A stretch of 64,000 nt of DNA from a candidate division WOR-3 bacterium (lineage in GTDB: Bacteria; Hydrothermota; Tepidihabitantia; Tepidihabitantales; CAIPLT01): the NCBI GenBank assembly GCA_039801505.1, contig JBDRUV010000001.1, positions 62,001 to 126,000 on the forward strand, written 5' to 3'. This document shows, in pieces, positions 10,580 to 59,893 of the stretch. A program made the translations under genes and the position numbers. Each line of letters starts with the position of its first letter. The stretch's first letter is position 1. The notes beneath the pieces are model-generated. The model was not told the origin of the DNA, searched no databases, and worked only from the letters and a program-made list of their open reading frames with translations.

Positions 10580-10608
10580 AGCATATTAGAAAAAATAATA
10601 GTTGTCAA
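10580..10608 (-). promoter_or_regulatory. Promoter for the membrane-protein/DUF89/hypC/mutM set
   Basis: On the minus strand TTGACA (10608-10603), a 17-base spacer and TATGCT (10585-10580). The -10 box ends 10 bases before the ATG at 10569, so the mRNA leader would be only about 3-4 nt. Confidence 0.65.
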
Positions 10609-11040
10609 GAGTAAAAAAGACAGAAGCGTTTTAATTAAATAAACAAATCATAAAGAACAAGCTAAAAATTAGGAGGCCGGTTGTAATAATTTTTTATTTT
10701 TTAACTTGTATTCCTGATATATAACAGCAGGTGATCTTGCGGCTACATTAATAAGTAGTTTAGATGTTAATTTTTTATAGGCCCAATAATTAAGAACGGC
10801 CATACGTCATTATATTTCCTAAATAGATAGAACGTTTAAAACCACCCGTATCATAAGTCCGGGGACCGCCCGGGGACGGTCATGGGACAAATTTTATGAA
10901 TGTAGCTCTTGCCAAACAAAAATTTGGTGGTAAAGTTTGTAATGATGCGTTGTAGTCAAGAGAGTCGGAGAAAGCCTTGACTTGAGGGAAAAGGGGGTTC
11001 ATTTTGCAATAATTAGAAAAGAAGGAAGCACGTGACAGAC
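10609..11040. other. Gene-poor stretch with no intact gene
   Basis: No convincing coding region is seen on either strand. A short open stretch from the ATG at 10896 (MNVALAKQKFGGKVCNDAL, then a TAG at 10953) reads like the start of a broken gene that I cannot identify. A G/C-rich patch around 10857-10886 has repeated GGGGAC units and resembles the dispersed element at 44754-44778 over a short core. The rest is A/T-rich and may hold upstream signals for the minus-strand operon. Confidence 0.5.
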
Positions 11041-11355
11041 ATGCCAACAAAGTATCTACGAGGAACAGAGACTTTTGAGGCAGGTTTGGACCGGATTTTG
11101 GATTATACGGATCGGGGATTTGTAGTTTTGTCAGCCAATCAAGGGTGGGATGACGAAAAAATTGAGAATGAGGCGTTCTAGGAATTGAAAGGAGAGATGA
11201 AGAAAATTGGGGCCAAGTTTTTCAAACTAGATGGGGTATGGCACGACGAAACTTTAGGGAAAGAGTATCGGGAGAAATCGTTATTTGTGCCTTATCCAGG
11301 TGAGGATTGGGGGACGAAGGAGGAGTTTTTGGATAAGATGTTGAAAGTAGCTTAA
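11041..11355 (+). pseudogene. Decayed small gene, in-frame TAG at codon 47
   Basis: From the ATG at 11041 the frame reads 46 residues (MPTKYLRGTETFEAGLDRIL...), a TAG at 11179-11181, then a further 57 sensible residues with the motif GAKFFKLDGVWHDETLGKEYREKSLFVPYPG, to a TAA at 11353-11355. The codon use and the hydrophilic/aromatic pattern carry straight on across the TAG, which indicates a nonsense mutation rather than two genes. The layout, a short protein with an x-S-L/F-L/F-V-P strand after a G-V-W/R-Y element, recalls small phage- or plasmid-type accessory proteins, but I cannot name a family with confidence. Suppressed TAG is possible but nothing else supports it. Confidence 0.5.
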
Positions 11356-11631
11356 ACTCATAATCAGGAAGCGATTATAAGGGTGGGCAGCGTAGATGTT
11401 ATATGGCGGTGTTCTTGTTTGGGTTACTATTAAGTTAGGGTGCGATTTCCTTGACAATAAGAGGCCGCGGCAGCTGATATTATTTCTCCGATAAAGATAT
11501 CGCCATTGTTTATAATTCAACGGAGAAAGATGTGGTTGATGCCAGCAGTTGATCTGGAGACGGGTTTTGAAGAAGTATAATGTGGCCAAGACCAGATAAA
11601 CTAGTGAGCAGTGTGTGAACCGCGCTGGCTA
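11356..11631. other. Non-coding or decayed sequence upstream of recA
   Basis: No intact gene. The plus-strand frame of the preceding pseudogene can be followed a little further (HNQEAIIRVGSVDVIWRC) and then breaks into stops, so more of the decayed gene may lie here. No RNA gene or clear repeat is visible. Confidence 0.4.
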
Positions 11632-11659
11632 TTGACATTCTGATATTTGTTTTTATACT
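11632..11659 (+). promoter_or_regulatory. recA promoter
   Basis: TTGACA (11632-11637), 16-base spacer, TATACT (11654-11659). The -10 box is 33 bases before the recA ATG and the leader contains AAAGGAG, so this is a conventional leader. No obvious palindromic LexA-type site is seen between the promoter and the gene. Confidence 0.75.
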
Positions 11660-11692
11660 AATTTTATAAAACTTAACCAAAGGAGTTAAATA

Positions 11693-12727
11693 ATGGCTGA
11701 CGAGGAGAAAATCAAGGCATTAAAGCAAGCGATTTCGCAGGTTGAAAAACAGTTCGGGAAGGGTGCCATTATGCGTTTAGGCGACTCCTCGGTTGAAGTT
11801 CAAACCGAGGTGATTCCCACCGGCTCCATTGGACTAGATTATGCCTTAGGGGTTGGAGGTCTACCGCGGGGGCGGGTAATTGAGATCTTTGGACCTGAGG
11901 CTTCGGGCAAAACCACCCTTACCTTACAAATAATTGCCCAAGTGCAGAAGCTTGGGGGCACAGCCGTATTTATTGATGCTGAGCACGCCTTAGATGTGCG
12001 CTATGCCCAGGCCTTAGGGGTCGATTTAGACAATCTATTTGTGGCCCAGCCCGATAGCGGTGAGCAGGCCCTAGAGATTGCTGAAACCTTGACCCGTTCT
12101 GGGGCTTTGGATGTATTTGTAATTGATTCCGTGGCGGCACTAGTGCCGCGGGCCGAGATTGAAGGCGAAATGGGTGATGCCTTTGTCGGTGTGCAGGCCC
12201 GGTTAATGTCTCAAGCTCTACGCAAGCTTTCGGCCGTGATCAGTAAATCAAAAACTTGTGCTGTGTTTACTAATCAGATTCGCCAAAAGATCGGTGTGAT
12301 GTTTGGTAATCCCGAGACCACCCCAGGTGGTTTGGCTTTGAAGTTTTATGCCAGTATTCGGTTAGATATTCGCCGAATTGGTCAGATTAAGCGCGGTGAA
12401 GAGATTGTTGGTAGTCGAACCAAAGTAAAAGTCGTGAAAAATAAATTAGCCCCACCATTTAAAGAAGCCGAGTTTGATATCATCTATGGTAAGGGAATTT
12501 CTCGGGCTGGCGAACTGGTTGATTTAGGACTACAGTTTAATGTCCTAGAACGGGCCGGAGCCTGGTACCAATTTGAGGGTGAAAAGATTGGTCAGGGGCG
12601 CGAAAATGCCATTCAGTTTTTAGAAGCTAATCCGGAGTTTGCCCAAAAAATTGAGAAAAAGTTAATTGCGGTATTATATGCCAAACCTGATGAAATTAAA
12701 ACTGAGACCAAACAGAAGAAATCCTAA
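11693..12727 (+). CDS. recA: Recombinase RecA
   Basis: A 344-residue RecA, the DNA-strand-exchange ATPase of homologous recombination. Walker A is [10 protein letters not shown] (about residues 66-75); the conserved [16 protein letters not shown], the [20 protein letters not shown] segment and the [21 protein letters not shown] loop are intact. The C-terminus is short and lysine-rich rather than strongly acidic. The ATG has AAAGGAG 8 bases upstream. It leads the recA-recX-alaS operon; recX starts inside its 3' end. Confidence 0.98.
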
Positions 12728-13289
12728 TAAGCTGTCGTTATATTTAGATGGCCGGTATTTTACCAGTCTGTCTCGAGATCTGGTATTAAAATTAGGCATC
12801 ACAACCGATGAGGAACTAACCGAAGAGCAGGTTGATCTTTTGGGACTAAGGGCTAATGAAGAAAAGGCCCGCAGTTATGCCTTACGACTACTTTCTTATC
12901 GCCCCCGGAGTAAAAACGAGCTACTTGAACGGTTAACGAAAAAAGGCTATCCCCAGGAAATTATCCGTAAGGTTGTAGAAAATTTAGCTAAAGAAAATTT
13001 AATCTCAGATTACGAGTATGCGAAAAGCATTGTTCGGCACTATCTCAATTTTCGACTCAAAGGACGCCATAAAATTATCTATGAGCTTAAAAAGCGAGGG
13101 ATTTCAGAAGAGATTATAAATCAGGTCCTAAAAGAGATTAACCCGGAAGAAGAGCTTCGGGCGTTAAAAACATTATTAGCCAAAAAACTCATGAGTAAAA
13201 CCCAAGAGCCATCAAAACTTAAGGCGCGGCTAATGCGTAGTGGTTTTAGTTTATCCCTAATTAATAAAGTTTTACACGAGACCAGATGA
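12690..13289 (+). CDS. recX: Regulatory protein RecX
   Basis: A protein of about 199 residues that binds RecA filaments and tunes their activity. It has the [11 protein letters not shown] beginning, then RecX three-helix repeats: [78 protein letters not shown] and a final repeat ending [12 protein letters not shown]. The frame is open from 12666, and ATGs at 12666, 12678 and 12690 are possible; 12690 gives the family-like N-terminus. The start lies within the end of recA. It overlaps alaS by 4 bases (ATGA). Confidence 0.9.
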
Positions 13290-15940
13290 ATCATCGGGAT
13301 ATTAGACAAACCTTTTTAGATTTTTATGCTGAACGTGGCCATAAAATTGTGGCCTCATCCTCATTGATTCCCAAAGACGACCCAACCCTTTTATTTACCA
13401 GCGCTGGGATGGTTCAGTTTAAGCCGTATTATGCCGGCACGGTCCCGGTACCGTATCGTCGAGCCACATCGATACAGAAGTGTCTACGAGCCACGGACTT
13501 AGAGGCGGTTGGTAAATCAATTAAATACTGCACTTTTTTTGAAATGCTCGGTAACTTTTCGTTTGGTGATTATTTTAAGAAAGAGGCGATTCCTTGGGCC
13601 TGGGAATATCTTACCGAAGTAGTTAAATTACCTAAAGAGAGGTTATATGTCTCAGTATACGAAGAGGATGCTGAGGCTTATGAAATATGGCGTAAAGATG
13701 TTGGTCTTGCGCCTGAGCGCATCTTTCGGCTCGGAGCTGATAACAATTTCTGGGGACCAGCTGGACTGGTTGGGGCCTGCGGGCCTTGTTCGGAAATCTA
13801 TTACGATTTAGGCGAAGAGTTTGGTTGTAAAAAGCCTAATTGTGGGCCGGGTTGCGATTGCGAGCGCTATTTAGAACTTTATAATATTGTGTTTCCGCAG
13901 TATGATAAGCAGCTGGATGGTCGACTCTTGCCCTTAAAAAATCGTGGTATTGATACCGGAATGGGTCTTGAGCGTCTGGCCATGGTCTCACAAGGTAAAC
14001 GTTCCATATTTGAGACCGATCTTTTTGCGCCACTCTTGCGGCGGCTGACCAAAATTTTAGACCGGCCGTTAACCTTAGAAACCAAGGTGGCGTTTTACGC
14101 AGCTGTAGATCATGCGCGCGCCCTGACTTTTGCTATTGGTGATGGGGCCTTACCGTCAAATGAGGGTCGGGGTTATGTGCTGCGCAGCATTTTGCGCCGG
14201 GCCTTGCTTTTTGCTTATAAAATTGGCATTACCGAACCATTTCTCTATCGGTTAGCTGGCGAGGTTATTACGGAGATGCGGCAGTGGTATCCAGAATATA
14301 AAGAGAAACAAGAGACAATAGCCCTGGTGATAAAAACCGAAGAAGAGCGCTTCTTAAAAACCTTAGCTAGTGGCCTTGAGCGCTTTAACGAATTAATCGA
14401 GCACTATCGGGACACAAAAATTATTCCCGGAATCGAGGCTTTTCGACTGCACGATACTTTTGGATTTCATATTGAGCTTTCCCAAGAGTTAGCTAAAGAA
14501 GCCGATTATCAGATCGATGTGTTAGGTTTTGAGGCCGAGATGGCCAAGCAGAAAGAGCGTTCCAAGAAAGTTATCATCGATACGAATCAAGCTTTTACGG
14601 AAACCGAAGAAGAAGCCTTGGCTCGAGCCGCCTTAGAGTTTTACGGCTACGATTTCACTGAGTTAGAGACTAATCTACTGTTAGTGCGTAAACTTTCGGA
14701 TAACGAATACGAAGTTCTCCTGGAGCGCACGCCGTTTTACGCCCAAGGCGGTGGGCAGGTCGGGGATACCGGCAGGATTGTTGGTGAAGGTTTTGAATTA
14801 GAGATTACGGATAGCTATTATAAAGCCCAGCGGCGCTTTTCTAAGGGTCGGCTGGTGCGGGGCGAACTTAAAGAAGGAGTCTATCTTTCTGAACCGATCT
14901 TAGTAAAGGCAATTGTGGATCTAGAGCGGCGAAGAGAAATCGAACGCGCCCATACGGCAACCCATCTTTTGCACAGTGCTTTACGGCAGGTTTTAGGAGA
15001 ATTTACCAAGCAAGAAGGTTCGTTAGTAGAACCTGGCCGGTTGCGTTTTGATTTTCGGGCTCCAGCGCCGCTTACTACAGATCAACTAAATAAGCTTGAA
15101 GAACTAGTAAATCGCAAGGTGCTGGAAGACCTCAAAGTTGAGCATCTCCGGAACTTGCCCATAGCCGAGGCCCAAAAGCTTGGGGCTTTAGCCTTTTTTG
15201 GTGAGACTTATGGCGAGCGGGTCAATGTCATCAAGATAGGAAATTTTTCTTGCGAGTTTTGTGGTGGTACACATCTACGCCGCACCGGCGAGATTGGCTT
15301 ATTTAAGATCGTAGCTGAAGAAGCCGTCGCGGCTGGAATTCGGCGTATTACCGCCTATGTTGGGCTTAAGGCTTATTTAGAAACCAAACGCGAACGGGCA
15401 TTATTGGATGAGGCACTTTTGGTGCTGAAAGTACCTGAAGAACGCTTAGCCAAGCGGCTTAGTGAGCTATTGGCCGAAAAAACTGAATTAGAAAGGCGTC
15501 TGACTGAGTTATGGCATAAGCAGCTCAAAGCCGAAGCCCAGAAACTTCTTAGCCAGTCAGAACGCTACTTAGGACTTAATCTTATTGTAGCCCAGTTTAC
15601 CGATTACGAGGTAAACGATTTACGCATTATCGCTGATGAGTTGCGCCGGGCGATTCCCCAAAGGCTCTGCGCAATCCTAATAACTGAGCACAGCTCGGGA
15701 GTTCGATTTGTAGTCGGTGTGTCGTCTGATCTAAAAAATCTATTACCAGCTAAAGACCTGGCTCAAAAGCTTGGCGAGGCCATAGGCGGGTTTGGCGGCG
15801 GACGCGAGCATTTAGCTGAAGGGGGTGCTAAGAGTAAACCAACTGGGGATTTCAGCTCGAGGGCTAAAGAAATTATCGCAAGGTATCAGGGTAAAATTTT
15901 ACCCGACGAGAATTTGAGCCCAACCGAGCCTAATGACTAA
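13286..15940 (+). CDS. alaS: Alanyl-tRNA synthetase
   Basis: An 884-residue class II synthetase of usual length. The catalytic domain starts at residue 1 (DIRQTFLDFYAERGH, then LLFTSAGMVQFKPYYAG), followed by the editing domain with HTATHLL and the metal motif CEFCGGTHLRRTGEIG, a coiled coil and the C-Ala domain ending in GFGGGREHLAEGGA. An additional cysteine cluster (CKKPNCGPGCDCE, residues ~185-197) in the catalytic domain could bind a metal and occurs in some AlaRS. It charges tRNA-Ala and edits Ser/Gly. It overlaps recX by 4 bases. Confidence 0.97.
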   Translation: MNHRDIRQTFLDFYAERGHKIVASSSLIPKDDPTLLFTSAGMVQFKPYYAGTVPVPYRRATSIQKCLRATDLEAVGKSIKYCTFFEMLGNFSFGDYFKKEAIPWAWEYLTEVVKLPKERLYVSVYEEDAEAYEIWRKDVGLAPERIFRLGADNNFWGPAGLVGACGPCSEIYYDLGEEFGCKKPNCGPGCDCERYLELYNIVFPQYDKQLDGRLLPLKNRGIDTGMGLERLAMVSQGKRSIFETDLFAPLLRRLTKILDRPLTLETKVAFYAAVDHARALTFAIGDGALPSNEGRGYVLRSILRRALLFAYKIGITEPFLYRLAGEVITEMRQWYPEYKEKQETIALVIKTEEERFLKTLASGLERFNELIEHYRDTKIIPGIEAFRLHDTFGFHIELSQELAKEADYQIDVLGFEAEMAKQKERSKKVIIDTNQAFTETEEEALARAALEFYGYDFTELETNLLLVRKLSDNEYEVLLERTPFYAQGGGQVGDTGRIVGEGFELEITDSYYKAQRRFSKGRLVRGELKEGVYLSEPILVKAIVDLERRREIERAHTATHLLHSALRQVLGEFTKQEGSLVEPGRLRFDFRAPAPLTTDQLNKLEELVNRKVLEDLKVEHLRNLPIAEAQKLGALAFFGETYGERVNVIKIGNFSCEFCGGTHLRRTGEIGLFKIVAEEAVAAGIRRITAYVGLKAYLETKRERALLDEALLVLKVPEERLAKRLSELLAEKTELERRLTELWHKQLKAEAQKLLSQSERYLGLNLIVAQFTDYEVNDLRIIADELRRAIPQRLCAILITEHSSGVRFVVGVSSDLKNLLPAKDLAQKLGEAIGGFGGGREHLAEGGAKSKPTGDFSSRAKEIIARYQGKILPDENLSPTEPND

Positions 15941-15970
15941 GGATGCCCGAAGCCTTAAATATTGAAGGGT

Positions 15971-16939
15971 ATGTTGAGCAAATGGCGACAGTTATTTTTT
16001 GTTTTATTGATTATTGGGGCAAGCCTTGAGACCCGGGCCAATAATTTATTTCTAATTCGGCGGCATAATAAATACGGCTATATTGATCGTAAAGGCCAAG
16101 TAGTAATTAATCCGATCTACGATTATGCGCGAGAGTTTTCTGAAGGCTTAGCAGCGGTCGCGCTTAAAGGGCTCTGGGGCTATATTGATACTTTAGGTCG
16201 GTATCAAATTCCCTTGCAATACGATTGGGCTGAAAGTTTTAGTTGGGGTCGTGCCGAGGTCCGGCTGAACAATAAGAGATATTATATTAATAGAAAAGGC
16301 GAAGTAGTATTTGAACTAAAATATCCCTATGCCGATGAATTTTCCGAAGGTCGATTGCGGGTTTCGAATGGGGAAAAATATGGCTTTCTTGACCCAGCCG
16401 GACGGCTTATTGGCAAGTTAGGCTACGACTGGGCTGATAACTTTTCCCAAGGCTTAGCCGTGGTATGTAAAGACAAGAAATACGGCTTTATTAATATCAA
16501 AGGCGAGTATTATATAAGACCGCAATTTAGCTGGGCTGGGCGCTTTCAGGACAACCGGGCTCCAATTAAACTGGACTCGCAATATGGCTATATCAATCTT
16601 CGGCAGGAGATTATTATTCCGCCACGTTTTGACGACGCCTGGGAGTTCTCGGAAGGTTTGGCTGTAGTGCGCGTCAATAACTACTTTGGGGCCATTGACA
16701 GCTTAGGCAAGTTTGTAATTTTACCCAAATATCAGGGACTGGCGAGCTTTAGTGAGGGGCTTATAGCATTTACCCTAGACAGCCTATATGGCTATTTGGA
16801 TACCTCAGGTCGGGTGGTAATCCCGGCAAAGTTTAGTTATGCTGGGCCATTTCGGGGCGGCTTGGCATTAGTAAAGATTAAAGACCAATGGGCGTATATC
16901 AATAAAGCTGGTAAGATTATTTGGAGCGAACGCAAATAA
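15971..16939 (+). CDS. Exported WG (KWG) repeat protein
   Basis: After a signal-type hydrophobic segment (residues ~8-24, LFFVLLIIGASLETRA) the whole protein consists of about nine WG repeats of roughly 30 residues, with the pattern Y-G-Y/F-I-(D/N)-x-x-G-x-x-V-I-x-P-x-(Y/F)-(D/S)-x-A-x-x-F-S-(E/Q)-G-L-A-V/A-V. Such repeats (bacterial KWG leptospira-type family) form beta-rich extracellular domains of uncertain function. The ATG at 15971 has GAAGGG directly upstream; a TTG at 15962 would add three residues. It stands 30 bases after alaS and 35 before nadA. Confidence 0.8.
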   Translation: MLSKWRQLFFVLLIIGASLETRANNLFLIRRHNKYGYIDRKGQVVINPIYDYAREFSEGLAAVALKGLWGYIDTLGRYQIPLQYDWAESFSWGRAEVRLNNKRYYINRKGEVVFELKYPYADEFSEGRLRVSNGEKYGFLDPAGRLIGKLGYDWADNFSQGLAVVCKDKKYGFINIKGEYYIRPQFSWAGRFQDNRAPIKLDSQYGYINLRQEIIIPPRFDDAWEFSEGLAVVRVNNYFGAIDSLGKFVILPKYQGLASFSEGLIAFTLDSLYGYLDTSGRVVIPAKFSYAGPFRGGLALVKIKDQWAYINKAGKIIWSERK

Positions 16940-16940
16940 C

Positions 16941-16969
16941 TTGCTATTTTAGAGATTTTTGGTTATAAT
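16941..16969 (+). promoter_or_regulatory. nadA promoter, start codon at the expected transcription start
   Basis: TTGCTA (16941-16946), 17-base spacer and a perfect TATAAT (16964-16969). Only 5 bases separate the -10 box from the nadA ATG and there is no Shine-Dalgarno, so the transcript should be leaderless. Confidence 0.8.
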
Positions 16970-16974
16970 ATTTA

Positions 16975-17892
16975 ATGGCAAACAACGCGGGCCTAACCGA
17001 AAAGATTCTGAAACTAAAAAAGAGCCTTAAGGCTGTAATTTTAGTCCATAACTATCAAAACCCAGAACTATATGCCGTAGCTGACTTTGTTGGCGATTCC
17101 TTAGATTTAGCCCAGAATGCCCAAAAAACCCAAGCCCCGATTATTATCTTTTGTGGTGTGCGCTTTATGGCTGAGACGGCCAAGATCTTAAATCCGCAGG
17201 CACGGGTGTTTTTAGTGGCCAAGGATGCTGGTTGTCCGTTAGCGGACACGATATCGGCTCCGGCGTTGCGACAAGCTAAAGAACAATACCAGCCGGACCT
17301 GGTTGTAGCTTATGTAAACACTACTGCTGAAGTCAAAGCCGAAGCTCACCTGTGCGTCACTTCGGCTAATGCCGTTAAGGTGATAAGCAAATTACCGGAG
17401 CATTACAAAATCTTATTTGTGCCCGACAAGCATTTGGCCCAATATGTAAAAATTAAGACCGGCCGTAAAATCATTGAATGGCCCGGCTACTGTTATGTGC
17501 ATGCCGAGTATTTTCAAGCATCTCATGTCTACAGGGCCCGCATCCAGTATCCGGACGCCAAGATTATTGTCCATCCCGAATGTACACCTGAGGTGGTAGC
17601 CGCGGCCGATTTTGTGGCTTCAACCTCCGGCATGGTAAAATTGGCCCAACTCTTTCCTCAGGTCGTCTTAGGCACCGAAGCCGGTATGTGCACCCGAATT
17701 AAGTTCTCCTTACCGCACATCGGCTGTTATCCCTTAGCTGCCCAAGCCATCTGTCAGGATATGAAAAAAACGACCCTTGAGAGATTAGCTTGGGTCCTAG
17801 AGAGTCTTCCTTTAGACCACGAGATTATTGTGCCTGAAGAGGTCCGCACTCGAGCCGAAAAGACCCTAACTAAGATGCTTGAGTACTCGTAG
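16975..17892 (+). CDS. nadA: Quinolinate synthase
   Basis: A 305-residue NadA that condenses iminoaspartate with dihydroxyacetone phosphate to quinolinate in NAD synthesis. The three [4Fe-4S] cysteines are present: IIFCGVRFMAETA, VHPECTPEVV and GTEAGMCTRI. The HNYQNPE and GDSLDLA elements near the N-terminus and the TSANAVKV segment match the family. nadB and nadC are not in the window. The 3' end meets the minus-strand PIN/TRAM gene with a 1-base gap. Confidence 0.96.
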   Translation: MANNAGLTEKILKLKKSLKAVILVHNYQNPELYAVADFVGDSLDLAQNAQKTQAPIIIFCGVRFMAETAKILNPQARVFLVAKDAGCPLADTISAPALRQAKEQYQPDLVVAYVNTTAEVKAEAHLCVTSANAVKVISKLPEHYKILFVPDKHLAQYVKIKTGRKIIEWPGYCYVHAEYFQASHVYRARIQYPDAKIIVHPECTPEVVAAADFVASTSGMVKLAQLFPQVVLGTEAGMCTRIKFSLPHIGCYPLAAQAICQDMKKTTLERLAWVLESLPLDHEIIVPEEVRTRAEKTLTKMLEYS

Positions 17893-17893
17893 T

Positions 17894-18472
17894 CTAGACT
17901 TCCCGATACTTCGGCCGGGCAAAAATTAGTTTACCAACATTGGTTTCAATACCGGCCGTAACAATTACCTCAAGCTCTTTACCCAGATAGCGCGCGCCAT
18001 CACTGATCACAACCTTTATACCACCGTCGACATAGCCAATGCCTTCAGTCTCTTCTTTACCCCGCTTTGAGACCACAACCCGAAGCTCAGTACCCGGTAA
18101 ATAATCCGGCTCTAAGTCTTTATATAGCTCGTTTAAGTCCAAAATATTGAGCCCAGTAAGCTCGTCCTTTATGGGCAATAACTCCTGCGCCATCGTTGTA
18201 ATAAAATACCGATGCTTACCTTTAAGAAGCTTTAATAAATCTTTGTGGTCTAAAGGCTTATCTATTACTTTCAATTTACCTTTTAAGAGTTGTTGGAGAC
18301 TTTGGAGGTGTCGTAAGCGGCGTTCGTGGGTGAGTTCGTTATTGGTTTGGGCTTGGGTATCGGGGATAATTACGAGTTTACCGTTGAGGACTTTTTTGGC
18401 GAAGAGTTTTAGCACTCGGGGGTCGGCTAAGCTTTTTTGGGTTATAATGTAGGTTGGTTCTTTAAGCCACAT
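17894..18472 (-). CDS. PIN-TRAM protein (YacL-like) with a degraded PIN active site
   Basis: A 192-residue protein. The C-terminal third (LPGTELRVVVSKRGKEETEGIGYVDGG...VIVTAGIETNVGKLIFARP) is a clear TRAM domain like that of YacL. The N-terminal ~115 residues have the PIN layout, but positions that carry the catalytic Asp/Glu in PIN nucleases are replaced: the first strand reads IITQKSLADPRV where YacL-type proteins have ILDTS, and the TND-type motif is TTM. The N-terminal membrane spans of YacL are missing. It lies downstream of radA in the same direction, 81 bases away. It may be an RNA-binding regulator rather than a nuclease. The start ATG lacks a Shine-Dalgarno. Confidence 0.7.
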   Translation of the reverse strand: MWLKEPTYIITQKSLADPRVLKLFAKKVLNGKLVIIPDTQAQTNNELTHERRLRHLQSLQQLLKGKLKVIDKPLDHKDLLKLLKGKHRYFITTMAQELLPIKDELTGLNILDLNELYKDLEPDYLPGTELRVVVSKRGKEETEGIGYVDGGIKVVISDGARYLGKELEVIVTAGIETNVGKLIFARPKYREV

Positions 18473-18553
18473 ATTCTATAAATCTAATGCTTTTAAGGTT
18501 TCTTAAAGATCCGGTTTTCTTTTCGGTTCGATATTCTAACATATTCAGATCTT

Positions 18554-19915
18554 TTATAAAAGTTCTAATACTTCTAAGGCTTCTTTTAGGTTTTCGACGC
18601 CGATCAATTTAATGCCGGATTCGGTGCGGTTTAGCTCGGCGAGATGGCTTTTAGGTACGATCAGTTCTTGGATGCCAAAGCGTTGGGCTTCCCGGGCTCG
18701 GAGGTTAACTCGGAGGACTCGTCGGATTTCCCCGCATAAGGCGACTTCACCTAAGATGGCGCGGTTTCGGGCGATTGGCTTTTTATAGTACGAGGAGACA
18801 ACAGCCGCGATGATGCCTAAATCAGCTGCCGGGTCATCGAGGTGTAGGCCGTAGGCGGTTTTCACAAAGATATCTCGGCTGCCGATGTTTATTTCGAGGT
18901 GGTGTTCTAAGATGCTTAAGAGCATGGCTAAGCGTTTGGGATCAAAGCCGGTGCAGATGCGTTGCGGATAATTAAAATAGCTGGTTGCCGATAGGGCTTC
19001 AAGTTCAATTAATAGGGCGCGTTCACCTTCTAAGGTCGGAATCAGCACCCGGCCCGGTTGTGTTTCGCCGTGCTCTGAGAGTACGAAGAGTTTAGAGTAA
19101 TCCTCCGGCACCAAGCCTTGATCGGTCATCTGAAAGACAGCCAGATCTGAGGTTGGGCCATAGCGATTCTTGACCACGCGCAACAGCCGATATAGTCCGG
19201 AGCGTTCGCCTTCAAAGTATACGACCAAATCGACTAAATGTTCTAAGGTCTTAGGACCGGCCAGGGTGCCAAACTTAGTAATATGGCCAATTAGGATGCC
19301 GGTAATATTTTGGGCTTTAAGCCGGGAGATTAACTCTTGGGCACAGCTGCGCACCTGGCTCATGCTACCCGGGCTGGCTAAGAGGTTGGGATGGTATATG
19401 GTTTGAATCGAGTCTACAATTACGATTCCGGGTTTCTGGTGTTCGATTTGCTGGATGATGGCTTGGAGATTGGTTTCGGCATACAGATAGATATTAGGGT
19501 TGGTAATACTCAGGCGTTGGGCTCGGAGGGCTAAGGCTTCGTTGGTTTCTTCACCGGAGATATATAGTCGGGGTTTATCGGCCGGACCGGTCAGGTTGGC
19601 TAAAAGTTGTAAGGCTAAGGTTGATTTACCGATGCCCGGTTCCCCACCCAAGAGTAGCACCGAGCCTTGGACCAAGCCACCGCCTAAGATGCGGTCTAAG
19701 TCGCCGAGTCCGGTCTGGTAGCGGTTAAGCGGATGCTGTCTGATAGCCGTTAAGGGTTCTGGTTGGCTCTGGGGCATCAGGGTCGATTGGGGTTCTGGGT
19801 TTAGCACTTCCTGATGAAAGCTATTCCAAGCTCCGCACGCCGGACAGCGTCCTAGCCAGCCTAAGCTTTGCTGGCCACATACGGCGCATACATAGATCGA
19901 TTTCGGTTTGGGCAT
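18554..19915 (-). CDS. radA: DNA repair protein RadA (Sms)
   Basis: A 453-residue RadA, a DnaB-like branch-migration helicase in recombination. The N-terminal zinc finger is CAVC...CPAC (Cys10, 13, 24, 27). Walker A is GGEPGIGKSTL; Walker B IVIVDSIQTIY. The usual KNRFG motif reads KNRYG here, a conservative change. The C-terminal Lon-like domain (VGLHLDDPAADLG-type stretch: AYGLHLDDPAADLGIIAAVV) is complete. It follows dnaB by 6 bases, an uncommon but sensible pairing of two hexameric helicases. Confidence 0.96.
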   Translation of the reverse strand: MPKPKSIYVCAVCGQQSLGWLGRCPACGAWNSFHQEVLNPEPQSTLMPQSQPEPLTAIRQHPLNRYQTGLGDLDRILGGGLVQGSVLLLGGEPGIGKSTLALQLLANLTGPADKPRLYISGEETNEALALRAQRLSITNPNIYLYAETNLQAIIQQIEHQKPGIVIVDSIQTIYHPNLLASPGSMSQVRSCAQELISRLKAQNITGILIGHITKFGTLAGPKTLEHLVDLVVYFEGERSGLYRLLRVVKNRYGPTSDLAVFQMTDQGLVPEDYSKLFVLSEHGETQPGRVLIPTLEGERALLIELEALSATSYFNYPQRICTGFDPKRLAMLLSILEHHLEINIGSRDIFVKTAYGLHLDDPAADLGIIAAVVSSYYKKPIARNRAILGEVALCGEIRRVLRVNLRAREAQRFGIQELIVPKSHLAELNRTESGIKLIGVENLKEALEVLELL

Positions 19916-50570: not shown

Positions 50571-51413
50571 ATGACAACATTTAAAATTGGATCTGCGACC
50601 GCAAAAGGCGGTTTTGCAAATGAAAAAGAAATTTGTAAAAAATTTAATAATTGGCAAAAAGATACGGAAGCACGAATATGGTTAAAAATTATGGGATATG
50701 AAATTAACCTTATAGACTCAGTTGAAGCAATTTTGATACCTACTCGTATGAAAAAAGAAGATGCTGAAAAATTAGGATTAAAAGAGAATTTTGAAGAATT
50801 AATGAAGTTTAAAAAGGCAGATGTGCAAATAAGAGTAATGATTACGATTGGTAAACTTATAAAACCAGAAAACCTCTCGCTAAAAAAGGCCAACTCAGAT
50901 GCGGACTATAATCAGGTAGATAAAAGACGAGTGGATTCTTATAAAGAAATTTGGAACTTTGACGATGAAACCGCATTTGGCTTAAAATTGTTTACTGGAG
51001 AAATCAATCCGTATTCTTTTCCTAAAATTATAAAAAATAAAAAATTAAGAGACCAGAGAAGACTATTTCTTGATGAATTACCTGAAAACTTGCGAAATAA
51101 AATAATAAATTTTTTCGAAAAGAATAGGATTCTTGTGGTTTCAGATATTTTAAAAGGTAGGGGAGGATTATCTGCTAATTGGATGCTTGTCACAAGATAT
51201 AATAAAGATGCTGATACTACTACATGGACATTGAAAGATATCAATTCTGTTATGAATTTCTTTGGTTCGGGAGATATAAAGATTTCTCCAAAAGGTAGTC
51301 TGTATATAGGCAAAATTACCATGCAGAGAAAAGGAGGTACGCCTGATCCAACAAAACTTCAATTTAAGATAAAGCCATGTGAATTGTTTAAAATGGAGGA
51401 TAGCAATGGGTAA
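50571..51413 (+). CDS. Type II restriction endonuclease-like protein
   Basis: A 280-residue protein. Features that resemble type II REases of the PD-(D/E)xK fold: a Glu-rich first helix (KGGFANEKEICKKFNNW, residues 12-28), then KADVQIRVMI (Asp84) and a strand ending LSLKKANSDADYNQVDKRRV (Lys105), which fits Asp...xxK active sites followed by the FNQ-D-KR helix; a middle SDILKGRGGLSANWMLVTRY region (about 202-221) and an IGKITMQRKGG...LQFKIKP end, which I recall from restriction-enzyme families. The usual acidic residue before Lys is Ser here. Its gene is A/T-rich, opens the island and its stop overlaps DUF262 by 8 bases. The specificity cannot be told. Confidence 0.62.
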   Translation: MTTFKIGSATAKGGFANEKEICKKFNNWQKDTEARIWLKIMGYEINLIDSVEAILIPTRMKKEDAEKLGLKENFEELMKFKKADVQIRVMITIGKLIKPENLSLKKANSDADYNQVDKRRVDSYKEIWNFDDETAFGLKLFTGEINPYSFPKIIKNKKLRDQRRLFLDELPENLRNKIINFFEKNRILVVSDILKGRGGLSANWMLVTRYNKDADTTTWTLKDINSVMNFFGSGDIKISPKGSLYIGKITMQRKGGTPDPTKLQFKIKPCELFKMEDSNG

Positions 51414-52464
51414 ATTTTTTTCTAGTAAAATGTATATAATAAATGACTTTAGGCAATGGCGTGAAAGAAAAGAATTAGAATTATCACCTAAGTTCCAAAG
51501 AAGAAACGTCTGGTCAGACAAAGCTAAATCATATTTAATTGACACTATTTTAAAGGGTTTCCCCATACCACCAATATTTATAAGGGAAAAAATAGAGTTA
51601 TCCACACATAAAACTACTAGAGAAGTAATTGACGGACAGCAGCGATTGTCAGCTATACTGGATTACTTAGAAGACGGTTTTAAAGTATTAAAAACCCATA
51701 ATGAAAACTACGGAGGAATATATTTTAGTGACTTGCCTGAAGAAGTTCAAAGCGAATTTTTGAGATATGAAATACTAACCAATGTTATTTCCGCTGAAGA
51801 AGACAAGGTGGTTTTAGAAATATTTGCGCGACTAAATACTTATACTGTTCCGCTTAATAAAACAGAAATCCTAAATGCAAAATACTTTGGAATTTTTAAA
51901 CAAATGGTTCACAGTTTAGCCTGGGAGTATAATACTTTTTGGACAAAATCAAAAATTCTTTCAGAAAACAAAATAGCAAGAATGGAGGATGTGGCACTTA
52001 CTTCCGAGTTAGTGATTGCTAGTTTAGATGGGATAAAAGATAAAAAAGAAGTAGAAAAATACTATAAACAATATGACGATAAGTTTGAACTCAAAGAAGA
52101 AATTAAAGAAAAATTTAAAAAGTGCATGGACATAATAGGATACATATATGGCGACCAGCTTCCAAATTCGTTTTTTAACAGGATTCCCCCTTTCTATTCT
52201 TTGTATTGTGTATTATACGATTTCCTATTTGGTTTAAATGGATCAAATAATCAAATAAGAATAAACGATATGCACTATGTGAGAATAAAAAATGCATTGG
52301 AGAATCTTGAGTCGCATTTAGAAGAAACCGAAGGAAAAACGGAAGAAGAATTTTCTAAGATTAAAGAATTCGTAAACGATTGTACTCGGCATACTACAAC
52401 AGAATCTGTAAGGAAAAAACGGCACAATTTTTTACTTAATTTTATTGGTAGGTATTTACAATGA
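51406..52464 (+). CDS. DUF262 (GmrSD-type N-terminal) protein
   Basis: A 352-residue protein from the ATG at 51406, chosen because it has GGAGG 6 bases upstream; an earlier in-frame ATG at 51379 lies inside the preceding gene without one. LSPKFQRRNVWSDKAKSYLIDTILKGFPIPPIF and EVIDGQQRLSAIL (DGQQR, residues 76-80) are the DUF262 signature, and ARLNTYTVPLNKTEILNAKYFG the distal block. DUF262 is a ParB/sulfiredoxin-like NTP-using module common in defence proteins such as GmrSD. No fused DUF1524 HNH domain is present, so the effector must be separate, plausibly the HEPN protein next door. Confidence 0.82.
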   Translation: MGKFFSSKMYIINDFRQWRERKELELSPKFQRRNVWSDKAKSYLIDTILKGFPIPPIFIREKIELSTHKTTREVIDGQQRLSAILDYLEDGFKVLKTHNENYGGIYFSDLPEEVQSEFLRYEILTNVISAEEDKVVLEIFARLNTYTVPLNKTEILNAKYFGIFKQMVHSLAWEYNTFWTKSKILSENKIARMEDVALTSELVIASLDGIKDKKEVEKYYKQYDDKFELKEEIKEKFKKCMDIIGYIYGDQLPNSFFNRIPPFYSLYCVLYDFLFGLNGSNNQIRINDMHYVRIKNALENLESHLEETEGKTEEEFSKIKEFVNDCTRHTTTESVRKKRHNFLLNFIGRYLQ

Positions 52465-52468
52465 ACTT

Positions 52469-53080
52469 ATGCGGTCGAAACTTGATGAATGTAAAACACG
52501 GCTAAAAGAAGAAATGGAAAACAGTTTAAGTATATTAAGATGGGTAAATGATAATAAACCAGATCATCGTATTGTCAACTCCATATATGAAATTTCTTTT
52601 TTAAAAATGTATTTGACGTGGGAATGGTTTTTAGAAAGGACTTTTATTTTTTATCTTATGGGTGAAAAAACTGATAGGGGGTATTGTCCAAGGTCTTACT
52701 TTAACCCCCGGGATGAACACCATGCTTATGCGATCATAAAGGGAAATGCTCGGTATCCTAATTGGTTGGATTTAGATTTCATAAGAGACAAAGCGGAATT
52801 ATTTTTTGAAAACGGTTCGCCATTTAAAGAAAGTTTATGCGACAAAGACAATATACGTATCGCATTATCTCAAATGAGGAAGATTCGAAACAACATAGTG
52901 CATATTTCACCAAGAGCAAAAGAGGAGTACGAAAGTCTAATTAGAAATGAATTCGGCATATTACAAAATTTGTCACCCGGCGAATTTCTTGGTAAAATAA
53001 AAGATGAAGAAAATAAAGTATCCTATATAACTTACTATAAAAACATTTTGGAAACCGCAAGCGATGAAATTGTCAAGTAG
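52469..53080 (+). CDS. HEPN-domain protein (MAE_28990/MAE_18760-like), candidate RNase
   Basis: About 203 residues, all helical. The HEPN active-site motif is RNNIVH (Arg140, Asn141, His145) in RKIRNNIVHISPRAKEEYESL, giving RX4H. A long helix pair with FLKMYLTWEWFLERTFIFYLMG and a DEHHAYAIIKGNARYPNWLDLDFIRDKAELFF middle region match my memory of the MAE_28990/MAE_18760 HEPN family, often placed beside DUF262. HEPN proteins of this type are metal-independent RNases. The start is uncertain: TTG at 52445 overlaps DUF262, while ATG at 52469 lies 4 bases after its stop. Confidence 0.72.
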   Translation: MRSKLDECKTRLKEEMENSLSILRWVNDNKPDHRIVNSIYEISFLKMYLTWEWFLERTFIFYLMGEKTDRGYCPRSYFNPRDEHHAYAIIKGNARYPNWLDLDFIRDKAELFFENGSPFKESLCDKDNIRIALSQMRKIRNNIVHISPRAKEEYESLIRNEFGILQNLSPGEFLGKIKDEENKVSYITYYKNILETASDEIVK

Positions 53081-53097
53081 GATTAGATAAACAAACA

Positions 53098-54987
53098 ATG
53101 TGGATATTGGCAAAATTAAAATTTGACTTAAGAGAGCCGGATGAAATTTATTTTGCACAGAAAGAAATAGAGGCTTTGTTAGAAACAAAAACGGAGTTTA
53201 TAAGGACATTGGCTTTTCTCTTCAAAAAAAAACCATTTAATTTACTTAATGAGGAAATAGTCCACTTAATAACCAGACTAGTTTATCTAGGAGAAGGACA
53301 AGGATTTCTCGCAAAAATTCCAATTAAAAATGTAGTAAACATTGCAAAGAGAGTTACATTCTTTAGGGAAATTTATATAATTCTTGAATCCAGGAACCCA
53401 AAAGATACACTTTGGAGGATCGGCATTAAAATTGCTCCAGAGCCATTAAACATCAATTCTCCTAAAATAGATCCTAATTGCTGGACTCAGGTTTTTTTAC
53501 AAGAATTAAATAACACTAATAATAAATTGATAACTGTCCGTCTCTTGCCATTTCAGACACTATTTGAATACGCTACGGAGGTAAAAAAACTGCCCTCTTG
53601 CGTTTTCCGAGCCAAAAAAAACGAAAACTGGAAAGACTATTTTACTATTAAAGAATTCGGAATTGAAAAGGGATTAAATGATTTGATAAAACATCTTAAA
53701 GAAGGGAATTACCGCTCGCCTCATTTTGGACTAGGTAAGAATCATATCGGTGATTTTGTTGATTGGGCTTCAACAGATCTGAGAAAACCGTTTCTACATT
53801 ATCTTCATAAATATAAAGGAAAAGGAGATCCAAGAATATCGAGGGCCCTTATAAATCTTCTAAAAGTCAAAGAAGGAAATACTATTCTTGATCCATTCGT
53901 TGGTTCCGGTGCATTTATTGCCGATGCTCCAACAATGGGGTTAAACGCTATTGGGATTGAAATATTAAACATCGGCAAAATAATTGCTGAAACAAAATGC
54001 AATCTTGGGATAGACATTAGTCAGTTGAAAGAAGCAATAATTAAATTATTTGAGCAAATTGATAAGGAACGCTCTGAAAAAGGCATAAATCCTAAATTAA
54101 CGGAATTAAGAGAAAAAATACGCAAAAACACATCTGATAGCGCTACGTACAAGAAAATAGAACCATATCTTAATCAAATATTATTATTAAAAGAAAAAAT
54201 AGAGACTATAGAAGAAAATAAAGTTAAACGGTTTCTCTTGGTTCTCTTAAGCCAACAAATACTTGAATACTCGGAAAGAGTTAAATTGGGCAGTATAATT
54301 GATTCGTTTAAATCGTATGTAGAAGACAGATACATGGTGTTATACGCTACACAAAAAATGGCTAAAATGCTAGGTGTAGATTTTACAACAACAAACGTGA
54401 AAATTATTAAAGGTGATTCAACGGATATGTCTATGATTAAAAGTGAAAGTATCGATGGGATACTTACTTCGCCTCCCTATTTCGACGCACTGGATTATAT
54501 AGGTAATAATAAAATCTCAATACTGATATTAGGTTTGGATGAAGATTTAAAATGGGGATCAACTAAAAACTTCTACGAAGCAAAGTATAGAGATAAAAAC
54601 AAACCTGCCAAAATACCGCTATTCGAAGGCGATAAATATTCTTCTATCTCCTTGCCAGAGTCAAGCTTGAAACTTATAGAACTTCTTAAAAAATCCCAAA
54701 GAATGCATAAAGCTGAAGTCGTTCAAAATTATCTTAAAATGATGAAACTTTCGTTTGAAGAATGTTATAGGGTCCTTAAAAAAAATAAATATTATTTAAT
54801 GGTTATTAGTAAGTACCACCGTTGGATAATACAAGGAAAAGAAGAAATTGTCGAAACATCACCGATATTGGCCGATTTGGGTAAATCTGTCGGATTTAAT
54901 TTGGTCGATGTGATCGAACATGGTCTATCAAAAGCGGATAAAGGTAAAATAGGGGTTGAAGATATACTTGTTTTTCAAAAACAATGA
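53098..54987 (+). CDS. DNA methyltransferase (amino-methyl type, DPFVGSG/TSPPY)
   Basis: A 629-residue protein. An N-terminal ~240-residue region with no obvious motif is followed by ISRALINLLKVKEGNTILDPFVGSGAFIADAPTMGLNAIGIEI: DPFVGSG (Asp265-Gly271) binds AdoMet together with the preceding strand. TSPPY (Thr457-Tyr461) is motif IV of N6-adenine/N4-cytosine methyltransferases. Between them lie ~185 helical residues, so the order is I then IV. RVLKKNKYYLMVISK forms a later strand. It is the natural partner of the restriction protein four genes upstream. A tRNA methyltransferase of the Trm11-like fold is the alternative, as the DPF region is similar, but TSPPY favours DNA. No Shine-Dalgarno is seen. 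Confidence 0.78.
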   Translation: MWILAKLKFDLREPDEIYFAQKEIEALLETKTEFIRTLAFLFKKKPFNLLNEEIVHLITRLVYLGEGQGFLAKIPIKNVVNIAKRVTFFREIYIILESRNPKDTLWRIGIKIAPEPLNINSPKIDPNCWTQVFLQELNNTNNKLITVRLLPFQTLFEYATEVKKLPSCVFRAKKNENWKDYFTIKEFGIEKGLNDLIKHLKEGNYRSPHFGLGKNHIGDFVDWASTDLRKPFLHYLHKYKGKGDPRISRALINLLKVKEGNTILDPFVGSGAFIADAPTMGLNAIGIEILNIGKIIAETKCNLGIDISQLKEAIIKLFEQIDKERSEKGINPKLTELREKIRKNTSDSATYKKIEPYLNQILLLKEKIETIEENKVKRFLLVLLSQQILEYSERVKLGSIIDSFKSYVEDRYMVLYATQKMAKMLGVDFTTTNVKIIKGDSTDMSMIKSESIDGILTSPPYFDALDYIGNNKISILILGLDEDLKWGSTKNFYEAKYRDKNKPAKIPLFEGDKYSSISLPESSLKLIELLKKSQRMHKAEVVQNYLKMMKLSFEECYRVLKKNKYYLMVISKYHRWIIQGKEEIVETSPILADLGKSVGFNLVDVIEHGLSKADKGKIGVEDILVFQKQ

Positions 54988-56421: not shown

Positions 56422-56766
56422 TTACTGGGTTTGGAGAAAAGTGTGCACAAGATTTAAGATTTCCTTAAGTAGCTCTGGTCTAAGGCCAAAATTTTGCCAT
56501 CTTTCAGTAGCCTTATGGAGTTTTTGCTCGACATTTTCTTTTCTCCGAAGGATTTTAAAGATGTGGCGGGCATAGTTATGGTACGCAAGATAATGAATTG
56601 TTGGCACCTCATATGTAGCTAAAGCTTTTCTCACTTGACTAGTAAGAGTTGTTTGCAATTGATATTCTGAGTATAAGAGCTTCCGATAGAAATCCTGGGC
56701 CTTATGGTTATAACTGGGCTGTTTTAAGAGCCATTTTTCGGTCATATATTTAGCCTTATCTTGCAT
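56422..56766 (-). CDS. Hypothetical helical protein, 114 residues
   Basis: A basic, mostly helical protein with no signal or membrane segment and no recognised motif; KILRRKENVEQKLHKATERWQNFGLRPELLKEILNLV shows the charge pattern. The ATG has AGGTGAT 4 bases upstream, which supports translation. It stands alone between dinB and tRNA-Sec. I do not know the family. Confidence 0.55.
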   Translation of the reverse strand: MQDKAKYMTEKWLLKQPSYNHKAQDFYRKLLYSEYQLQTTLTSQVRKALATYEVPTIHYLAYHNYARHIFKILRRKENVEQKLHKATERWQNFGLRPELLKEILNLVHTFLQTQ

Positions 56767-56884: not shown

Positions 56885-56978
56885 GGAGGCGGATGGGTGC
56901 TGGTGTGCCTACTGGACTTCAAATCCAGGTGCTCTTCGAAAGGGGAGCGGTAGGTTCGATTCCTACACGCCTCCGCCA
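56885..56978 (+). tRNA. selC: tRNA-Sec, anticodon TCA
   Basis: A 94-nt tRNA with the hallmarks of bacterial selenocysteine tRNA: anticodon loop CTTCAAA (anticodon TCA at 56919-56921) on a CTGGA/TCCAG stem, extended acceptor GGAGGCGG pairing with ACGCCTCC (seven pairs and a terminal G-A), a long variable arm (GTGCTCTTCGAAAGGGGAGC), a T arm GTAGG-TTCGATT-CCTAC and an encoded GCCA end. It closely follows the E. coli selC pattern. SelA and SelB genes lie 1-4 kb away, converging. Confidence 0.96.
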
Positions 56979-57007: not shown

Positions 57008-57167
57008 GAGCTTTATCTGTTTCCAACCCCCCACTCTGTTTTGATTTTGTCGACAGTTAACGGATTATAGGATTCAAGAGCCACCCCTAATCTGCGTAAA
57101 TTGAACTTTGGGCCTTGGAGCAATTTTACATATAATAAATATAATAACGAATTTACTGGCAGATAAA

Positions 57168-57959
57168 TTATACCTTGTGAGGATGGAGACCAAAACCTTT
57201 TGCGACAAAAACCTTATAATTAAGTGGAACGGAATATGCATTTTGTTCACGTTGGTAGTAGTCCTCGATCGCACGCAGATGATCTGCGGTCGGGACATAA
57301 TTAACACTGTTTTTACAATCATAAACAAATCCAAATTGTTTCCCGGCAGTCGATTCAGGATACCAAACTACACCATCTGGATATGTGCCTTCTTTTTTAT
57401 GCCCCATTTGTTCACCCTCTAAACCCAAGGCTCTAAACAATTCAAACACCCTGTCTTCAAATTCATCGTTACTTAATTGAGCGTCTTTTAAATCCAAAAA
57501 TCTTTGTCCAATCCAATCAGTCCAAACAGAGATTCTAATTTCAGTTTCAAATAAATTTAACCAGTCCTGAGGAGGTTGTTCGCCAAGTTCGTCTAAAATC
57601 CGCAAAATTGTATCGGGATCAACTGCACAAAATAAGTTCCCAATGGGAAGTCGTCTGTTTAATTCCACACTGGAAGTTCTGGATCTTTGTAAATACCTAA
57701 AAGCAAAAAAGGGTCGCCCATTCGATTCATCATATCTCATACCGGTTATCATTAAATAATCAAATGCGTAACTCTTATACTCGCGGTAGTACCTGCCGAT
57801 TCCGGGTAGCGGGCAATTTTCCGCTAACTCATGCCAGTTATCAAGTTGATTGTAGTTCATCCCACGATATGGAGTTTCTGCCTCATTCTTTTCCCAATAA
57901 GGGACGTTTGGGGCGTCTTTCCATCTAAAATTTGTGGTTAAAACCAGGCATTGTTTCAT
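57168..57959 (-). CDS. Putative PD-(D/E)xK nuclease with FokI-like cleavage domain
   Basis: A 263-residue protein. Its C-terminal ~100 residues contain FELFRALGLEGEQMGHKKEGTYPDGVVWYP (Pro194-Asp195-Gly196) and FGFVYDCKNSVNYVPTADHLRAIEDYY (Asp214-Cys-Lys216). The layout EXXXFELF...LG...PDG...YG/FG-x-x-x-D-x-K followed by a helix with L/H/A/D residues matches the FokI cleavage domain (Asp450, Asp467, Lys469). The first ~150 residues are unlike the FokI DNA-recognition domain and unknown to me. It is 14 bases after selB with AAGGAGG before the ATG, so it is probably co-transcribed with selA-selB. It may be a lone restriction or defence nuclease. Confidence 0.68.
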   Translation of the reverse strand: MKQCLVLTTNFRWKDAPNVPYWEKNEAETPYRGMNYNQLDNWHELAENCPLPGIGRYYREYKSYAFDYLMITGMRYDESNGRPFFAFRYLQRSRTSSVELNRRLPIGNLFCAVDPDTILRILDELGEQPPQDWLNLFETEIRISVWTDWIGQRFLDLKDAQLSNDEFEDRVFELFRALGLEGEQMGHKKEGTYPDGVVWYPESTAGKQFGFVYDCKNSVNYVPTADHLRAIEDYYQREQNAYSVPLNYKVFVAKGFGLHPHKV

Positions 57960-57973
57960 ATATACCTCCTTAA

Positions 57974-59893
57974 TTAAGCTTTATTTGTTTTATATTTTGA
58001 GGACAACACTCTCGTGTCACCATGTCTTTTAGTAATACCCTTACTATCAAAATAAACAAGAATTGGTAGGGCACTGCGTCGGCTAATGCCTAATAGACTT
58101 TTAAATTCAGTTACTCTGATTTCTTGATTTTTTTGCAAAAACTCAATTAATTTCTCCTGGGCCATTTGAAGGTATGTCCGATGAAGCATTAGTCCTTCAC
58201 CTAAACTTATAACCTCGCCTAAATCTAATAAATATTTTAGGGCCGGCCTTATTTGTTCAGATGAGCTATTAAGCCTTTGGGTTAGTTCTTTTTCGGTTAC
58301 TGGTTCGAACTTCTGGGCTAAAAAGAGCGTTCGTAAATTATCGACAATGGCTTGAGTTTTATGATCAAGAGCTGGCTGAAAATTAACTAATTTTATAAGA
58401 TTATTTGGAGTAATCTGCACGAGCCCAGCCAAAGAAAGTTTACTGGTACAAAAATCGATAAGTGTTTTATCAAAATCAGCACCTAATTTTGTGGAGAGCT
58501 CTAGGTTACTAATACCTAAGCGGCTAGGATTTGCCTGATGATAATTTTTTAACTCGCTTGTGATTTGTTCTTGTAGCTTTATAAAATTTGTCGAGTGATA
58601 ATAAAGTTCCCGTCGCTCATCAAGACACAAAACCTTTTTTTCATTCTGCAACTGAGCTAAGGCACTTTTAACTTCCTCAAGCGATAAGCCAGTTTCAAAC
58701 GCCAACTCTTGAGGCCTAAGTGGGGCCTTAAAACTCCTTAATAATTTTTCATGAATAAGGGTAGTATTTTCGGCTTTTTCTAATGAGATAAGATGTGCTA
58801 GTAACTCCTCGTCTGGACTTTTAATCTTACCCGCCTTAGGATCAAGAATTGTCCCGCCGCCGATGGTGGTGGCTGGTGAATAAGTCCGCACCACAAAACG
58901 GTCTCCGATGCTGGCAACGGCCGGGGTTTCGAAACGAAACTGTACCAAGGCTTTATCTTGAGGCATAAGCATTTTGCGATCCAGCAAGACAACTCGGCCT
59001 AAAAGCTCTTTGGTGCCAAGATGGATCCTCAAGCGCTCAAAATTCTTTAGTGCTCGGCGTAAAGAACTCAAAAGATATAGCATGGCATTCATAAACAGTG
59101 AAGGTTTAAGAAATCCCGGAGCCGCTAACACATCACCACGGGAGACTTCTTCTTTTTCTACTCCAGAAAGATTAATTGCGGCCCGAAAACCAGTGCCAAC
59201 TACTTGGGTCGGTTTATTATGGACCTCGATATTTCGCACCTTGACCAGCTTTTGCTGGGGCAGAAGTTCTAATTCATCACCGATTTGTGTCTTTCCAGAA
59301 AGCACGGTTCCACAAACTACCGTGCCAAAACCCTTGATTGTAAATACTCGGTCAATGGGCATCCGAAATACTCCGTGGTCGACTTTAGTTGGTAGCTCTT
59401 GGATTTTTTGGTCTAATTGTACTCTTAGATTATCAATACCTTCACCGGTAACATTAGAAACTAATACGACCGGGGCGTCTTCTAAAAATGAGCCCTGCAC
59501 AAATGTTTTAATTTCTTCTTTTAGACTAATAATCCGATCTTCACTTACCAAGTCAATTTTGGTAATTACGATAATCCCCGACTTTATCCCCAAAAGATTT
59601 AAGATCTCAAAATGCTCACGGGTTTGGGGCATTATTCCGTCATCAGCCGCAATTACAAATAAGACCAGATCAATTGTCGAGGCCCCAGCCACCATATGCC
59701 GAACAAATTTCTCGTGACCCGGAACATCAATTATTGTGGCTTCATCACCATAAAAGACAAATCCCAAATCGGTGGTCATACCTCGTTCTTTTTCTTCCTT
59801 CAATCGGTCAGGATCAATACCGGTCAAAGCTTTAATTAAAGCACTTTTCCCATGGTCGATATGGCCGGCGGTCCCAATAACAATGTGGCGCAT
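57974..59893 (-). CDS. selB: Selenocysteine-specific elongation factor SelB
   Basis: A 639-residue translation GTPase. G1 is [56 protein letters not shown] is G3, ITKIDLV the G4 box. Domains 2 and 3 follow ([17 protein letters not shown]...), and from about residue 360 to the end the C-terminal winged-helix region that binds SECIS RNA (e.g. [28 protein letters not shown]). It delivers Sec-tRNA to UGA codons. It starts 6 bases after the selA stop. Confidence 0.97.

What the first reader, a model, noticed from the sequence alone, without database searches (positions are those of the whole stretch)
57168..57959. FokI-like cleavage domain protein placed in the selA-selB operon
The C-terminal part has PDG (Asp195) and DCK (Asp214, Lys216) in the FokI cleavage-domain arrangement, on an N-terminal half that is not the FokI recognition domain. 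It follows selB by 14 bases with a good Shine-Dalgarno. No methyltransferase is next to it. A dimerising nuclease linked to the Sec machinery is unexpected, and the unfamiliar N-terminal half may be a new target-recognition module.
Basis: partly seen in the sequence, partly recalled or inferred. Interest (0 to 1): 0.65.

Follow-up and report, generated by a model that had tools for sequence, protein, structure and literature searches.

The report
Broken FokI-like nuclease gene beside selB
A stray restriction-enzyme-like DNA-cutting gene has been inserted next to the selenocysteine genes of one bacterium and its reading frame is now broken, so it looks like a picked-up defence gene and not a part of the selenocysteine machinery.

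Summary
The ORF is real (57168-57959, minus, 263 aa, 14 bases after selB, good Shine-Dalgarno). The FokI-like reading of its C-terminal half holds at family level. A profile of four homologues matches FokI's cleavage domain (E 8e-7, score 47 against at most 21 for decoys), with Asp195/Asp214/Lys216 on FokI Asp450/Asp467/Lys469. (1) The ORF is a truncated gene. The last ~50 residues, an ungapped 50-residue match to the Thermococcus barophilus plasmid homologue and the last element of the FokI fold, lie in another frame at 57013-57177. The gene is frameshifted, or the assembly is wrong there. (2) It is not part of a sel operon. In a congener the same order (dinB, 114-aa ORF, selC, selB, selA) is intact without it, and no other selB locus examined has it; homologues sit elsewhere. 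An R.HinP1I-like restriction block 2.2 kb away is also absent from the congener. Two WOR-3 homologues carry Asn in place of Asp214. The N-terminal half matches nothing, including EVE. Most likely: a horizontally acquired solitary restriction-type nuclease, now probably inactive. Both AlphaFold models were too poor (pLDDT 39 and 42) to settle the fold.

The parts
57168..57959 (-).
57013..57177 (-). Displaced C-terminal end of the same gene in another reading frame (54 codons and stop; PVNSLLYLLY...TEWGVG), equivalent to the last helix/strand element of the FokI cleavage domain
   Evidence: E 7.1e-5; score 128 against at most 53 in shuffles
57540..57959 (-). N-terminal domain shared by all four family members, no match to any known family
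57960..57973 (-). 14-base gap to selB with Shine-Dalgarno AGGAGGT
57974..59893 (-). selB, selenocysteine-specific elongation factor (syntenic neighbour, not functionally tied)
56885..56978 (+). selC, tRNA-SeC (anticodon tca), convergent neighbour; selB-selC adjacency is ancestral

Best explanation
The locus is a horizontally acquired, solitary restriction-type endonuclease gene that landed in the short gap between selB and selC of one WOR-3 bacterium. It belongs to a small uncharacterised family (here, two other WOR-3 genomes, one Thermococcus barophilus plasmid). Each member is one polypeptide: a ~140-residue N-terminal domain, presumed to choose the DNA target, followed by a FokI-like PD-(D/E)XK domain that would cut near it. 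No methyltransferase travels with it, so an intact member most likely attacks foreign DNA either through a DNA feature the host lacks (for example a modification) or through a target protected by an unlinked methyltransferase. The window copy has a frameshift just before the last structural element of the nuclease and is most likely inactive. Shown: family, FokI relationship at profile level, frameshift in the sequence as given, insertion relative to the congener. Inferred: DNA cleavage, defence role, target recognition by the N-terminal half, loss of activity.
For: FokI relationship: profile match with decoy and shuffle controls, Pfam FokI_cleav_dom as best hit of the Thermococcus member (6.8e-4, sub-threshold), aligned catalytic residues and C-terminal element; FokI chains were ranks 1, 3 and 5 of a Foldseek search, non-significant (E 0.07 to 0.26) and from a low-confidence model. 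Insertion: congener G001 has glycosyltransferase, dinB, 114-aa ORF, selC, selB, selA in the same order without the nuclease; no other examined selB locus has it; only 2 of 60 relatives hold a clear homologue, both with selB on other contigs. Mobility: closest relative (40% identity over the whole ORF) is on archaeal plasmid pTBMP1. Frameshift.
Against: The AlphaFold models are poor (pLDDT 39 and 42), so the fold rests on sequence profiles and motif order. Two homologues have Asn in place of the second catalytic Asp, so the family need not be uniformly a nuclease. The frameshift could be an assembly error, in which case the gene is intact. Only four members were found, so conclusions on the N-terminal half are thin. 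G001 lacking the gene could in principle be a loss, though all other examined relatives lack it there too.
Confidence: 0.72

Rival explanations
1. The gene is intact and the frameshift is an assembly or sequencing error; the product is a full-length working solitary nuclease co-transcribed with selB.
For: The displaced 54 codons are stop-free and still strongly conserved, the rest of the ORF is open, and the Shine-Dalgarno is good, so any break is recent. The source is a draft assembly in 57 contigs.
Against: The junction lies in mixed sequence without a long homopolymer, where short-read assemblies rarely slip; a recent real mutation looks the same.
Confidence: 0.3
2. The nuclease is functionally tied to selenocysteine: for example it acts on selenium-related nucleic acid or depends on SelB.
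For: It lies 14 bases after selB with its own Shine-Dalgarno and may be co-transcribed.
Against: Absent from the congener's otherwise identical locus and from all other selB loci examined. Homologues in G021 and G026 are not near selB and the Thermococcus one is on a plasmid without annotated sel genes in the 19 kb examined. No in-frame UGA: the ORF ends in TAA.
Confidence: 0.03
3. A modification-dependent (type IV-like) nuclease whose N-terminal half is an EVE/PUA-like modified-base reader, as in EVE-HNH or SRA-type enzymes.
For: No adjacent methyltransferase in the window or the WOR-3 homologues; fusions of PUA-superfamily sensors with nuclease domains are an established design (PMC7897488, abstract); the order of strands and helices recalled EVE domains (from memory, a lead only); YTH chains appear low in a Foldseek list (ranks 42 and 49, E 2.2 to 2.3).
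Against: The profile comparison with two EVE proteins gives 12.3, below unrelated decoys (up to 21.7); no Pfam or PDB hit for the domain. The model is low-confidence.
Confidence: 0.2
4. The C-terminal domain is some other PD-(D/E)XK lineage (Mrr-like or resolvase-like) and not FokI-related.
For: The Thermococcus member also hits Mrr_cat (0.012) and a RusA-like phrog (1.6e-4) weakly; Foldseek of the L010 nuclease-domain model lists EndoMS and Hjc, non-significantly.
Against: FokI is the best Pfam hit and the profile alignment runs through to the C-terminal element typical of FokI.
Confidence: 0.2

Closest known systems
FokI restriction endonuclease, cleavage domain (PF09254; PDB 1FOK, 2FOK)
   Same: Order and spacing of PDG...D-x-K, following helix, final strand/helix element; profile E 8e-7
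   Different: No FokI recognition domains, no cognate methyltransferase beside it, below Pfam's curated cut-off, interface pair Asp483/Arg487 not conserved
Thermococcus barophilus MP plasmid pTBMP1 protein WP_013747413.1 (hypothetical protein)
   Same: 40% identity over residues 1-262, and the displaced C-terminal 50 residues match as well: true family member
   Different: Intact 309-aa gene on a plasmid near a nucleotidyltransferase and, about 4 kb downstream, a type IIG-like methylase
G033 protein with FokI cleavage and D3 domains (L004:1219-2070)
   Same: FokI-type cleavage domain, in a genome of the same class as the window's
   Different: Genuine FokI relative over the Pfam cut-off (3e-21), with the D3 domain and a methyltransferase-like fragment nearby; the window protein has neither
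EVE-HNH / SRA-type modification-dependent endonucleases (for example VcaM4I, PMC7897488)
   Same: General design: solitary nuclease with a separate DNA-reading domain and no methyltransferase
   Different: Nuclease domain is PD-(D/E)XK, not HNH; N-terminal half shows no EVE similarity

Membership tests
FokI-type cleavage domain | PD-(D/E)XK catalytic triad in FokI arrangement | tested here: met
   Asp195/Asp214/Lys216 align with Asp450/Asp467/Lys469; but Asn replaces Asp214 in both WOR-3 homologues
FokI-type cleavage domain | Sequence-profile similarity across the domain | tested here: met
   hhalign 47.4, E 8e-7, controls at most 21; Pfam 6.8e-4, sub-threshold, for one member only
FokI-type cleavage domain | Same three-dimensional fold | tested here: inconclusive
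   Models at pLDDT 39 and 42; FokI tops the Foldseek list of the window model without significance, but not that of the L010 domain model
FokI-type cleavage domain | Complete domain in this gene | tested here: not met
   Last ~50 residues lie in another frame
FokI-type cleavage domain | Dimerisation needed for cleavage | not testable with these tools
   FokI's Asp483/Arg487 pair is not conserved in the alignment
Type IIS restriction-modification system | Recognition domain of FokI type (D1-D3) | tested here: not met
   No Pfam match in the N-terminal half at E up to 1 for the window protein or 0.1 for the homologues
Type IIS restriction-modification system | Cognate methyltransferase beside the nuclease | tested here: not met
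   Neighbours are selB and selC; the nearest methyltransferase (53098-54987) belongs to a separate R.HinP1I-like block
selA-selB operon component | Conserved linkage to selB in related genomes | tested here: not met
   Absent in congener G001 and the other selB loci examined
EVE-type modification-dependent endonuclease | N-terminal EVE/PUA-like domain | tested here: not met
   hhalign 12.3, below decoys; no Pfam hit

The most novel reading that the evidence does not exclude
A previously undescribed, rare and horizontally spread family of solitary restriction nucleases in which a new N-terminal DNA-reading domain, possibly a modification sensor, directs a FokI-type cleavage domain without a methyltransferase, with some members turned into catalytically altered (Asn) forms.
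Probability: 0.35. Interest if true: 0.5.

Novelty: new variant of a known kind. Interest (0 to 1): 0.3.

Why it matters
It removes a surprising claim (a nuclease tied to selenocysteine) and replaces it with a testable one: a small family with a FokI-like cutter on an unknown targeting domain, with an intact member on a hyperthermophile plasmid. FokI-type domains on new targeting modules are of practical use, and a thermostable one would be handy. The window copy itself is probably a dead remnant.

Tried and rejected
EVE/PUA-like N-terminal domain: profile comparison with PH1033 and MJECL36 gave no support. Programmed frameshifting: no canonical slippery heptamer seen by eye at the junction, so a mutation or assembly error is preferred. 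Integration into selC by a tRNA-directed element: no repeat of the tRNA 3' end anywhere else in the window. Structure prediction of the window protein and of the L010 nuclease domain: both too poor to use; Foldseek on them non-significant. More homologues: genome contigs, viral contigs, phage and plasmid searches gave only the two WOR-3 loci and the Thermococcus plasmid; the archaeal side could not be searched by genome because a plasmid locus is not accepted as a centre. FokI-family search in relatives found only the G033 locus.

Full report
Observation. The ORF at 57168-57959 on the minus strand encodes 263 aa, starts with ATG 14 bases after the selB stop and has an AGGAGGT Shine-Dalgarno. 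It contains PDG at Asp195 and YDCK at Asp214/Lys216. By itself it matches no family in Pfam, NCBIfam, PADLOC or PHROGs and no PDB sequence.

Relatives. A full-length homologue (309 aa, 40% identity over residues 1-262, E 2e-52) is on plasmid pTBMP1 of Thermococcus barophilus. Two further members are in G021 and G026, genomes of the same order; L009 and L010, found independently, carry the same proteins and are labelled candidate division WOR-3, so the window is taken to be from that group. No other member turned up in the phage, plasmid, viral or genome scans. The family is therefore rare in what could be searched.

The C-terminal domain. The Thermococcus member hits Pfam FokI_cleav_dom at 6.8e-4 (19.6 bits, cut-off 25) and Mrr_cat at 0.012. 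The alignment puts Asp195/Asp214/Lys216 on FokI Asp450/Asp467/Lys469 and carries through to the last FokI element (LSVEELLIGG... aligned with IPVNSLLYLLY... and LTFDALLLLLV...). Both WOR-3 homologues read YNCK, with Asn in place of the second acidic residue. Structure prediction did not help: pLDDT 39 for the window protein and 42 for the L010 nuclease domain. FokI chains were ranks 1, 3 and 5 of the Foldseek list for the window model, but at E 0.07 to 0.26, and the list for the domain model is led by EndoMS, also without significance.

The break. The window ORF stops before that last element. Downstream, in a different frame, 57013-57177 encodes 54 codons, of which 50 align without gaps to the tail of the Thermococcus protein (score 128; best of 2000 shuffles 53); the family profile finds the same stretch (E 7.1e-5). 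So the gene is cut by a frameshift near 57177, either a mutation or an assembly error. The displaced stretch is free of stops and still conserved, so a true break is recent. Intact copies exist in the relatives.

The neighbourhood. selB was found in 47 of 61 genomes. In congener G001 (selB 75% identical) the order glycosyltransferase, dinB, 114-aa ORF, tRNA-SeC, selB, selA is the same, but selB and tRNA-SeC are separated only by a short spacer and no nuclease is there. Other genomes also show selB directly next to tRNA-SeC, for example G003, G028, G033, G035, G041 and G060. None of the 29 loci of other genomes examined has the nuclease after selB, though two of them end at or soon after the selB stop. 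In G021 and G026 the homologue is on a different contig from selB. The gene is therefore best read as a single insertion in the window's genome with no conserved tie to selenocysteine. The same comparison shows that the block 50571-54987 (R.HinP1I-like enzyme, GmrSD_N/DUF262 protein, unknown ORF, amino-methyltransferase) is also absent from G001 and has GC about 0.31 against about 0.42 around it.

The N-terminal half. It is shared by all four members and matches nothing in the libraries. An EVE/PUA-like reader was considered because solitary nucleases with such readers are known (PMC7897488); profile comparison with two EVE proteins gave no support.

How it most likely works (inferred). In an intact member the N-terminal domain would recognise a DNA feature and the FokI-like domain would cut nearby, perhaps after pairing of two molecules; FokI's known interface pair is not conserved, so pairing is open. 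The lack of a partner methyltransferase favours a modification-dependent or otherwise self-sparing enzyme, or an orphan surviving on an unlinked methyltransferase; several amino-methyltransferase hits exist in the genome. The window copy is most likely inactive.

Noticed in passing
window 50571-54987 (+): R.HinP1I-like restriction enzyme (Pfam 1.9e-53), GmrSD_N/DUF262 protein (PADLOC NsnA 1.5e-41), unknown 211-aa ORF and an N4/N6-type amino-methyltransferase: a low-GC insertion between the glycosyltransferase and dinB, absent from the congener. HinP1I's own partner is, from memory, a cytosine-C5 methyltransferase, so an amino-methyltransferase partner would be unusual.
   Followed up: partly
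window 56422-56766 (-): 114-aa ORF without a family match, conserved between selC and dinB in the congener (49% identity).
   Followed up: partly
L004:1219-2822 (G033): A genuine FokI relative (FokI_cleav_dom 3e-21 plus D3 domain) with a methyltransferase-like fragment nearby in a genome of the same class; possibly split into two ORFs (1219-2070 and 2067-2822).
   Followed up: partly
L009:8001-8720 and L010:2413-3405 (WOR-3): Homologues of the nuclease in which the second catalytic Asp is Asn (YNCK), suggesting catalytically altered members.
   Followed up: partly
L008 (pTBMP1) 8818-18702: The plasmid homologue lies beside a small ORF/nucleotidyltransferase pair and upstream of an Orc1/Cdc6-like ATPase and a type IIG-like methylase.
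   Followed up: no
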